Shown one piece after another: positions 28,001 to 62,168 of a stretch of 64,000 bases of DNA (the first letter of the stretch is position 1; each line of letters starts with the position of its first letter). A program made the position numbers and the translations under genes. The notes beneath the pieces are model-generated. The model was not told the DNA's origin. It worked only from the letters and a program-made list of their open reading frames with translations, and did no database searches. Origin of the DNA: Sycon ciliatum (lineage: Eukaryota; Porifera; Calcarea; Leucosolenida; Sycettidae); assembly GCF_964019385.1 (NCBI RefSeq), contig NC_088644.1, positions 22,959,866 to 23,023,865 of the forward strand. Direction: 5' to 3'.

Positions 28001-31000
28001 ATGAGGCGGTGTCTACAAGTACCACCATCCATTCTACTTTATAGTGCATAGGATCTGGTGCCATTTAGATTGATTTAAGGGAAGCTCTCATACTGCAGTG
28101 GATTTGCGCATCTGTCTTGATGGCCATGGCAGCTGGCATGCAAGTCTTAATGGCCAAGCCAACTGATGTGCAAGTCACGCTGCACATCTAAGCCGAGAAT
28201 GCTACAGGTACTGAATGGATTACTTTGGATTACTTTTTTTGTCTGGCTGACAGCAAAATTAACGTAAATCAAGCCTTTTAAGTCTCACAACCACTGGTGT
28301 AAGCGCTGAAAACCCCACCAGCCGCATCCACATGATCTACTCAGTGTGCTTGGCCACAAGTTCCTAGTTGACTGTGGATAGCAGCACGGGACAAATAGCA
28401 ACGTCACAGGATGATCCTTGATGTCCGAATAAATAATTGCTTTCATGCCAATCGTATATTTAGCAACGTCACAGGATGATCCTTGATGTCAGCCTGTCAG
28501 CCTGTCAGGGGTATCACTTTTGCTATAGGATAAAGTCTATTGTCTAACTTAGTACCGTATTTCCCCGAATATAAGTCTTACACCTTTTTACACTAAACGT
28601 CATGGCCAACAAAAGGGGTGCGACTTACAATCGAGCATGATCTACTACTGAAGTGACTGTATTGAAATGATATGACATGGAGGACCTGAAAAAAGAGATG
28701 GGACTTAGAATCGAGTGCGACTTGTATAAATAATCGGGGAAATATGGTGTATTCTTTTTGAATCAATCTTCCGGTGAGTCCGTAGAGCATGAAAGTCGGA
28801 GTAGAGAAAAATTCCACTGGACCTTGCGTCAAGTTGTGTGTGTGTGTGTGTGTGTGTGTGTGTGTGTGTGTGTGTGTGTGTGTGTGTCACTGTGTGTGTG
28901 TGTGGGGGGGGGGGTGTATGTGTGTGTGTGTGCGTGTGCGGGTGCGTGCGTGTGTGTGTGTGTGTGTGTGTGTGTGTGTGTGTGTGTGTGTGTGTGCGTG
29001 TGTGTGTGTTTAGCAAGGTCTCAAAAATTAGTGATTGCGATCATAGGTTTAGTGACTTTTGTCCAAGTTCACAAAAAAAAGGTGAAGCCCGTACATCCTT
29101 GTTTCATCAGGTGTGAATACACAGTTTGGCTTTCAACAGAAGCACAGCCCGCCTCGGACGCCCAGTAGTTCCGCTAAGGTTTGTATGCGTAAGACTCTTG
29201 TGACCACCGCCGTGTTTGTATGTATGCATTCGCGTGGACTAGAAAGCACCTCAGTTCTGCGAACCCCCTCCCCCCCCCCTTCCCCCCCCCCCCCCAGACA
29301 CGCATACGATGTAAGTGCGCTCTGACGGCGACCATACATCATTGCATCACAAACAGAAAGAAATCTCCGCTGGATATTGAATTCCTTTACTGCTTGCTCC
29401 ACTGTTCTAGAAAGGCCTACATACACTTATCCCAATAGATACATGTTAGATTCAATAGATACATCTACTCCCCTTTGTCTTGTTGTCCAGTGTCATTTTA
29501 GTTGTCCTCTTCCCCTGATTATTAGTAGGGCTGTGTTTGCTAGTAAAAAAATAAAAAAATAAAAAAATGTTATCTTACAAGTTGTTTGTTGTCCCGTGTT
29601 TGTTGTTGCCTGTGGAGTTGTTATGTTTTGCTCTGGTGAGAGGGTAAGTTTGCCGTTGTCATCAGAGCCGTACCAGTACCTGGACAAGATAACACATCGT
29701 GACGGAGCAGTGAAGTGTCTGGGGCAAGATACATGTACTTTCAAACACAATGTCACGTGAGCTGAGTGCATGTAGGGAATAGCCACCAGCTGCAGAAGAA
29801 TCCCTGTGTTCCTCGGTTACCTAAAATGTACCACGATAGAGTGTTCCTGCACGAAGAGTCACACCGGAATCACCATGATTTCAGTTACAGCGGCGGGCTA
29901 AGACAACTCAGAGAGTAATCATCAGCATGGAGCACTGATGACAATATAGTGAATGTGGTTTTCGTAGGGCTTGAAAGTGCTACGCCACAGCTTGCCCGGA
30001 GCCACGGTAATGCTGACCTTTGGATATTCACTTGGATCCAGTTTTTGTATGGATCCATACACATCTGGGTGGTTTTCCTTCACAGCATAGTGACACATCC
30101 GCCGGTAGTAACTGGACCCGGTCCTCTCGGTCAGGGACCCACTCCTGGTAAAAAATCACACCTGCGTGCAACACGAGGAGGGGTCCTATCCACTAACATA
30201 TTGTACTTTGCCACGGGCGGGGTACATCCAAAAGTCATCCAAAAGTCACTATTTGTCGTTAGTTGATGTGACGGCTTACTTTTAAAGGTCGTTAGCTGTA
30301 TTGATGATGATGAGCACTCTCGGAAGTCTGCTTTAGAGCTGCTGCGATATGCATTGCTTGCTAATTTTCGTAGTCGAAGCACTCTGGCACTAGAGCAACG
30401 AGCTATCTTAATTAAAGGGGAAGTAAAGGCTAAAATCAAATTTTCACCACTTGTAGTCTTTGGGGTGCAGAGTCGAATGGTCTTAGTCCGAGGAAGCTGA
30501 GACGCCCCCTTCCTCCTTTATTCCCAATCGAACTCGCCAATTCCACTGACGCTTGTTATAGACTGCATTCACTTCATATTGCCGTCGCTGCATGCTGCTC
30601 TCTCGCTGCCTCTTCGTACGATCTTACCTCCTTTCGCTTCATACAATCTTCTCCATTCGGGCATGTCTACGTTTTTTCTCATCATGGCTGCTGGCCCTTA
30701 CCTGGCTGCTCTGGGCATGCTCGGATCATTCTCTTGTCTACCTTCGTAATGATAACTACCAACAAGAATTACTCCTCGTGTTGCTTGTGACTGTCGTGTG
30801 CCACAAGCATGCAGTAACTAAGTGTAAATTACAACAACGCTGGGTGACTGCGCCCTACTAGATGGGGATTTGTATGCAAAATGTCACTAAAAGCACCATT
30901 TCATTCTTATAAAAGCAAGGATGACCGCGATTGGCCCATATGTTCTAGTCTTTTGGACGCTGAGTCGACTGGGTTTGGTCCGAGAAGGCTGCTATTCAGC

Positions 31001-62168: not shown

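What the first reader, a model, noticed from the sequence alone, without database searches (positions are those of the whole stretch)
29680..61344. A 25-kb satellite sits inside one intron of an otherwise intact gene
Exon 61345-61526 (ending [10 protein letters not shown] with two bases left) joins in phase to exon 29579-29679 (YWYGSDD). The 31.7-kb intron between them is 80 percent one 31-bp satellite. Satellites of this size are usually heterochromatic and intergenic. Every pre-mRNA of this gene would carry hundreds of copies of the array's minus strand.
Basis: partly seen in the sequence, partly recalled or inferred. Interest (0 to 1): 0.8.

Follow-up and report, generated by a model that had tools for sequence, protein, structure and literature searches.

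The report
Giant repeat array inside one intron
One intron of a purple-acid-phosphatase-type gene has been blown up to 32 kb by about 813 tandem copies of a 31-letter repeat that is essentially found at this one place in the genome; a striking size, but the kind (a large intronic minisatellite) is already known, for example in the human CACNA1C gene.

Summary
Minus-strand exons 61526-61345 and 29679-29579 join in phase across a 31,665-bp intron, 80% of which is one 31-bp array (35122-60485, about 813 copies). The gene is a 12-exon purple acid phosphatase (PAP) relative; exon 1 lies just outside the window. The join is well supported: two tandem paralogues have the same intron, same phase, like splice sites, but only about 1.2 and 5.9 kb and no array, and single-ORF paralogues encode both exon halves. 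Two corrections. (1) It is not a dispersed satellite: all 124 exact copies of a common unit in the 538-Mb assembly lie here, so it is a single-locus minisatellite. (2) 'Otherwise intact' is half right: frame and splice sites are intact, but GDxxY and GNH motifs are lost (GGLSH, GNY), so the product is probably a pseudo-enzyme. Likely mechanism: slippage plus duplication of blocks up to 58 units, tolerated because it is spliced out; its sense strand has almost no AG, no good donor, no poly(A) signal. That depletion is within chance. Transcription, splicing and polymorphism could not be tested. Closest known: the 30-bp, 3-30+ kb CACNA1C intronic VNTR.

The parts
35122..60485 (-). 31-bp tandem array in the intron, about 813 copies; unit on + strand TCATCAGTGTGGATTGGTGG(T/C)ATACAG(T/C)GAG; strand given is that of the host transcript
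29680..61344 (-). host intron 3 of the PAP gene, 31,665 bp, phase 2, GT-AG
   Evidence: same intron in two tandem paralogues
62097..62168 (-). PAP exon 2 ([12 protein letters not shown]...)
61345..61526 (-). PAP exon 3 (YRKENEPDS...TGLTPNTAY)
29579..29679 (-). PAP exon 4 ([10 protein letters not shown]...)
27048..27209 (-). PAP exon 5, DxG motif kept (FADMG), GDxxY motif altered (GGLSH across the exon 5/6 join)
26050..26145 (-). PAP exon 6, GNH(D/E) motif altered to GNY(E)
25592..25607 (-). PAP exon 7, 16-bp micro-exon
22369..22485 (-). PAP exon 8
21650..21874 (-). PAP exon 9 ([21 protein letters not shown]..., AGHR kept)
19136..19224 (-). PAP exon 10 (GHYH kept)
17116..17282 (-). PAP exon 11
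   Evidence: start moved from the 17262 tried, which broke the frame
15665..16006 (-). PAP exon 12 with hydrophobic C-terminus (by eye) and stop
34953..35079 (.). dispersed repeat ending about 40 bp before the array (about 95% like copies at window-coordinates 82658-82785 and -58235 to -58355)

Best explanation
A single-locus minisatellite (giant intronic VNTR) arose in intron 3 of one member of a tandem purple-acid-phosphatase cluster and grew to 25 kb, by slippage of the 31-bp unit and by duplication of long blocks of units (unequal exchange or replication repair). It is carried as passive intron sequence: the gene is transcribed through it and it is spliced out. Its base composition in this orientation makes that easy, because the transcribed strand has almost no AG dinucleotide, no good 5' splice site and no poly(A) signal. 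Shown: array, single locus, gene structure, block duplications, signal depletion. Inferred: order of events, transcription, splicing, neutrality.
For: Array and unit inventory. Single locus: the genome holds 124 exact copies of one common 31-mer and the window holds 124; with up to 3 mismatches in a 21-mer core, 797 of 814 genome hits are in the array, 17 elsewhere against 7 for the reversed-pattern control. Host gene: Pfam Pur_ac_phosph_N 8.9e-11, Metallophos 6e-9, Metallophos_C 8.5e-7; PDB 3zk4 E 1.2e-39; 12 exons, all 11 introns GT-AG, one frame, one terminal stop. Array absent from sister introns: about 5.9 kb in copy B and 1.2 kb in copy C, no repeat-like sequence above a shuffled control; our intron without the array is 6.3 kb. 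Growth by blocks: exact runs of 58, 42 and 41 units recur 2.4, 1.4 and 1.7 kb away; unit types shift along the array. Sense strand: AG 1.58/kb against 59.97/kb in the rest of the window, none in the 18 kb from 35122; GTRAGT 0 and AATAAA/ATTAAA 0; donor-like at 6 of 9 or better 0 against 10.6/kb.
Against: No RNA, read or second-individual data, so transcription, splicing and polymorphism are untested. The signal depletion is not unusual: 13.5% of 31-mers drawn from the rest of the window, and 26% of random units of the same composition, lack both AG and donor-like sites, so it is no evidence of selection. Long exact block repeats could in part be assembly artefacts. Only 2 of the other 4 recognised cluster copies could be checked for the intron.
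Confidence: 0.85

Rival explanations
1. The array has a function in the host gene (slows or times transcription, lowers expression, or acts as an intronic regulatory platform), as proposed for satellite introns of Drosophila Y genes or as an expression association at CACNA1C.
For: The gene still reads through, and exon 9 is conserved against three cluster copies (dN/dS 0.11, 0.33, 0.38); long CACNA1C alleles go with lower CACNA1C expression in fibroblasts, though not in most other tissues tested (preprint PMC13131567, passages); satellite introns of kl-3 are transcribed (PMC6508621, passages).
Against: Two paralogues do without the array; no conservation, expression or reader protein is known for this unit.
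Confidence: 0.08
2. Assembly artefact: the array is shorter or longer in reality, or joins two loci falsely.
For: Exact blocks of up to 58 units repeat at kilobase shifts; the array may exceed read length (read type unknown).
Against: No N in the window or in the 60 kb above it; the only N run in the 184 kb held is at -2499 to 0. Exon order on both sides agrees with paralogues; 36 unit variants give anchors for assembly. A wrong length is possible, a false join unlikely.
Confidence: 0.07
3. The exons left and right of the array belong to two genes, and the array is intergenic.
For: None found.
Against: Same intron, phase 2, ACAC|GTGAGTA and AG|GTACTGGTA in three tandem copies, ours included; both halves contiguous in single-ORF paralogues on C3 and C5.
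Confidence: 0.02
4. A genome-wide satellite family seeded a copy into this intron.
For: Size and homogeneity resemble a satellite array; 17 inexact core hits lie elsewhere against 7 in the control, untraced.
Against: No exact copy of the tested unit elsewhere in the 538-Mb assembly.
Confidence: 0.03

Closest known systems
CACNA1C intronic 30-bp VNTR 'TRACT' (human; preprint PMC13131567, abstract and passages seen)
   Same: 30-bp against 31-bp unit, single intron of a coding gene, 3-30+ kb against 25 kb, many unit variants; perfect tracts and block duplication discussed there as routes of growth
   Different: length and sequence polymorphism and expression associations measured there, none testable here; host gene and unit sequence differ; its printed commonest unit contains AG
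Satellite-filled gigantic introns of Drosophila Y genes kl-3, kl-5 (PMC6508621, abstract and passages seen)
   Same: tandem repeat fills an intron and would be transcribed with the gene
   Different: those are megabase introns of simple satellites such as (AATAT)n on the Y chromosome; this is 25 kb, single-locus, in a 50.6-Mb contig whose sex linkage is unknown
Lupin diphosphonucleotide phosphatase 1 / plant-type purple acid phosphatases (PDB 3zk4)
   Same: alignable from the N-terminal domain to the C-terminal domain (query residues 6-456 of the 522 given)
   Different: host gene has lost the GDxxY Asp and Tyr and the GNH His

Membership tests
Minisatellite / VNTR (single-locus) | head-to-tail units of roughly 10-100 bp (range recalled) | tested here: met
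   31 bp, about 813 copies
Minisatellite / VNTR (single-locus) | one locus in the genome | tested here: met
   124 exact copies of one common 31-mer in the genome, 124 in the window; 17 of 814 inexact core hits elsewhere against 7 control, not traced
Minisatellite / VNTR (single-locus) | copy number varies between individuals | not testable with these tools
   one assembly only
Intronic VNTR like CACNA1C | lies wholly within an intron of a protein-coding gene | tested here: met
   12-exon in-frame model, same intron in paralogues
Intronic VNTR like CACNA1C | host pre-mRNA transcribed through and spliced | not testable with these tools
   no RNA data
Satellite DNA family | many loci or megabase arrays | tested here: not met
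   25 kb
Y-loop type gigantic intron | megabase satellite introns on a Y chromosome | tested here: not met
   31.7 kb intron; sex linkage not testable
Purple acid phosphatase (fold family) | Pur_ac_phosph_N, Metallophos and Metallophos_C domains | tested here: met
   all three above Pfam cut-off; a fourth hit (Beta-prop_EML, 17.4 bits against a cut-off of 88.2) is noise; exon 1 alone has no Pfam match; 3zk4
Purple acid phosphatase (active enzyme) | motifs DxG, GDxxY, GNH(D/E), VxxH, GHxH (list recalled; seen in paralogues L021 and L022) | tested here: not met
   DMG, AGHR, GHYH kept; GGLSH and GNYE replace GDxxY and GNHE

The most novel reading that the evidence does not exclude
The array is not merely tolerated: orientation and unit sequence are held so that the transcribed strand stays free of AG and of donor sites (a splice-silent spacer), and array length tunes the output of a pseudo-phosphatase in a tandem cluster whose members differ in catalytic residues. 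Against it: chance gives such a unit in 13.5% of cases, and the printed CACNA1C unit does contain AG.
Probability: 0.05. Interest if true: 0.6.

Novelty: new member of a known kind. Interest (0 to 1): 0.3.

Why it matters
It is a clean natural case of how far one intron can be inflated by a single minisatellite without disturbing frame or splice sites, with array-free sister introns in the same cluster as built-in controls. It also suggests a simple testable rule: large intronic arrays may be found preferentially in the orientation whose sense strand lacks AG and donor sites. In itself it is a very large example of a known kind rather than a new kind.

Tried and rejected
Intron ORF at 30155-29925 (minus) looked like a possible extra exon with an acceptor-like site; no Pfam match, and although about 130 bp of it aligns to the intron of copy B, the frame there is broken by stops, so it is treated as a conserved intron fragment, not an exon. 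Coding potential of the array: the plus strand has stop-free runs of 975, 640 and 586 codons, one in each of the three frames, on the strand opposite to the gene; by inspection the common GCGAG units hold no stop in any frame; rejected as an artefact. Selection for a splice-silent sense strand: not supported. The 17 inexact core hits outside the array (7 in the control) were not traced. A first exon-11 start (17262) broke the frame and was replaced by 17282. ARAGORN, run with the bacterial code, found no tRNA; Rfam gave one weak tRNA match at 3045-3114 (29.5 bits, gathering 29). Two general paper searches (4 papers, all listed; 10 of 56 listed) showed titles and abstract beginnings only; none was opened. 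Species not identified and not tried.

Full report
What is there. TRF finds one dominant array in the window at 35129-60485, period 31, 812.9 copies, 96% matches. Cutting at TCATCAGT gives 812 anchors and 811 inter-anchor units: 753 of 31 bp, 56 of 34 bp, one of 35 and one of 52 bp, with 36 distinct unit sequences; the four commonest make up 603 of 811. The composition is strongly skewed: on the plus strand G 34.8%, C 13.2%, GC skew +0.45.

Is it a satellite? The exact 31-mer of one common unit occurs 124 times in the whole 538,412,230-bp assembly (the count is whole, only the first 100 places were listed) and 124 times in the window. A 21-mer core with up to 3 mismatches gives 807 forward and 7 reverse hits in the genome against 2 and 5 for the reversed control pattern; 797 forward and 0 reverse are in the window, all of them in the array. 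The 17 hits elsewhere exceed the control's 7 slightly and were not traced. It is thus essentially a single-locus minisatellite, not a dispersed satellite. The other arrays that TRF lists in the 184 kb held around it (period above 6, score 200 or more) are all far smaller.

What is the host gene? The conceptual protein matches Pur_ac_phosph_N (8.9e-11), Metallophos (6e-9) and Metallophos_C (8.5e-7), all above Pfam's cut-off, and PDB 3zk4, lupin diphosphonucleotide phosphatase 1 (E 1.2e-39). Exon 1, with a hydrophobic leader by eye, lies outside the window at window-coordinates 68560-68096; alone it has no Pfam match, but the alignments to the single-ORF paralogues L022 and L023 begin within it. 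The full model has 12 exons, 11 GT-AG introns, a single frame, 677 codons and a terminal stop; exon 7 is a 16-bp micro-exon. The true start codon was not fixed: the modelled first residue is Leu, with in-frame Met codons two residues on and just upstream. Intron lengths are 5927, 570, 31665, 2369, 902, 442, 3106, 494, 2425, 1853 and 1109 bp. The array is 25,364 bp, 80% of intron 3; without it that intron would be 6.3 kb.

Do the two exons belong together? A search of the own genome gave 38 matches to the protein, many of them exons of further tandem copies on the same strand between 22.817 and 22.949 Mb of C2. In copy B (L051) and copy C (L030) the same exon pair is split by an intron at the same residue and phase, with donor ACAC|GTGAGTA and acceptor AG|GTACTGGTA as here; by the coordinates it is about 5.9 and 1.2 kb long, and the best local match of either stretch to the repeat unit is no better than in a shuffled sequence (scores 11-13 against 12). 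Single-ORF paralogues on C3 (L021, L022) and C5 (L023) align across the join without a break at it. I examined this intron in 2 of the other 4 recognised cluster copies: for gene 2 next door exons 2-4 were not found (a run of 2,500 N lies in that stretch), and copy D was not fetched beyond two exons. So the array most simply grew in this one paralogue; loss from the others is not excluded.

Is the gene intact? Frame and splice sites are. The catalytic motifs are not all there: DxG (FADMG), AGHR and GHYH are kept, but GDxxY reads GGLSH and GNH(D/E) reads GNYE. Paralogues L021 and L022 keep GDISY and GNHD/GNHE; L023 has lost GDxxY, GNH and GHxH as well (GNLAY, GERE, AYFAN). In the tandem cluster, of the five copies read at these exon ends, C and D keep GD and GNH; ours and B have GG for GD and GNY or GSP for GNH; gene 2 has ID and GHG. 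PAP exon 9 (called exon8 in the script; its first codon takes in the two acceptor bases) gives dN/dS 0.11 against B, 0.33 against gene 2 and 0.38 against C; exon 3 is looser (0.64 and 0.77 for ours), and exon 1 gives 1.7 and 1.8 for ours on few changes (4.5 synonymous, 23.5 and 25.5 non-synonymous), all. My reading: a gene still under some constraint, with a probably inactive product; the motif list is recalled knowledge.

How did the array grow? Unit types change along the array: in bins of 60 units the share of GGCAT units rises from 0 at 35122 to 1.0 in the last two bins, and CAGTG units fall, unevenly, from 0.88 to 0-0.05 in the last five bins. Exact blocks recur: 58 units (1,804 bp) at 41576 and 44000, 42 units at 44713 and 46086, 41 units at 48392 and 50074, 26 units at 57614 and 58234. 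That is the pattern of slippage plus block duplication; the CACNA1C preprint cites a study proposing block duplication by recombination there (PMC13131567, passage). A dispersed repeat ends about 40 bp before the array start.

How is it tolerated? On the transcribed strand AG occurs 40 times in 25,364 bp (1.58/kb against 59.97/kb in the rest of the window), none in the 18 kb from 35122; GTRAGT 0, poly(A) hexamers AATAAA and ATTAAA 0, donor-like sites at 6 of 9 or better 0 (10.6/kb in the rest), acceptor-like sites 2 (5.8/kb in the rest). The other strand has 9.15 GTRAGT per kb. The array holds 813 CTGAY branch-point-like words on this strand, about one per unit, mostly with no AG to go with them. 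This could explain why so large an insert need not disturb splicing, but it is no proof of selection: 13.5% of 31-mers from the rest of the window and 26% of random units of the same composition do as well, and the printed CACNA1C unit does contain AG. The sense RNA is C-rich, which should disfavour R-loops (inference).

Comparison. The closest known object is the 30-bp VNTR in an intron of human CACNA1C, 3-30+ kb (preprint PMC13131567; abstract and passages seen). Drosophila Y genes carry megabase satellite introns that are transcribed (PMC6508621; abstract and passages seen). The present case is a new member of the first kind in a different gene. I do not claim that it is unpublished: only four paper searches were made, none by host gene or species.

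Verdict. Observation confirmed; interpretation partly supported. It is a very large intronic minisatellite in a probable pseudo-phosphatase gene, with array-free sister introns as controls. Interest 0.3.

Noticed in passing
window 6441-5980 and C2 22.817-22.966 Mb: A tandem cluster of at least five PAP copies (ours, gene 2, B, C, D) on the minus strand. Exon 1 is 86% identical at protein level between ours and gene 2 or B, while some core exons of gene 2 are only 50-63% identical and others 84-90%, suggesting patchy gene conversion.
   Followed up: partly
window 27060-27048, 26060-26050; L039, L040, L041, L050, L012: Catalytic motif loss differs from copy to copy in the cluster (GD and GNH kept in C and D, altered in ours, B and gene 2).
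   Followed up: partly
window 35122-60485, + strand: Stop-free stretches of 975, 640 and 586 codons, one per frame, on the strand opposite to the gene; an ORF caller would report false repeat proteins.
   Followed up: yes
window 29965-30093: About 130 bp of intron conserved with copy B (L051 1930-2058) though not as a reading frame; possible intronic element or old repeat.
   Followed up: partly
L009, window-coordinates about 69400-72400: Non-LTR retrotransposon remains with reverse-transcriptase-like ORFs (named by eye, no family search) just upstream of exon 1.
   Followed up: no
window 25395-25552, 16758-16883; window-coordinates -11580 to -11371, -14313 to -14039, -30686 to -30533: Several small minisatellites (12-41 bp units) lie in and around this gene cluster; the region seems prone to them.
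   Followed up: no
window-coordinates -2499 to 0 (end of L011): A run of 2,500 N abuts the window start; assembly gap or withheld stretch, not pursued.
   Followed up: no
window 3045-3114, minus: Weak tRNA match (Rfam 29.5 bits, gathering 29), not called by ARAGORN; perhaps a tRNA-derived repeat.
   Followed up: no
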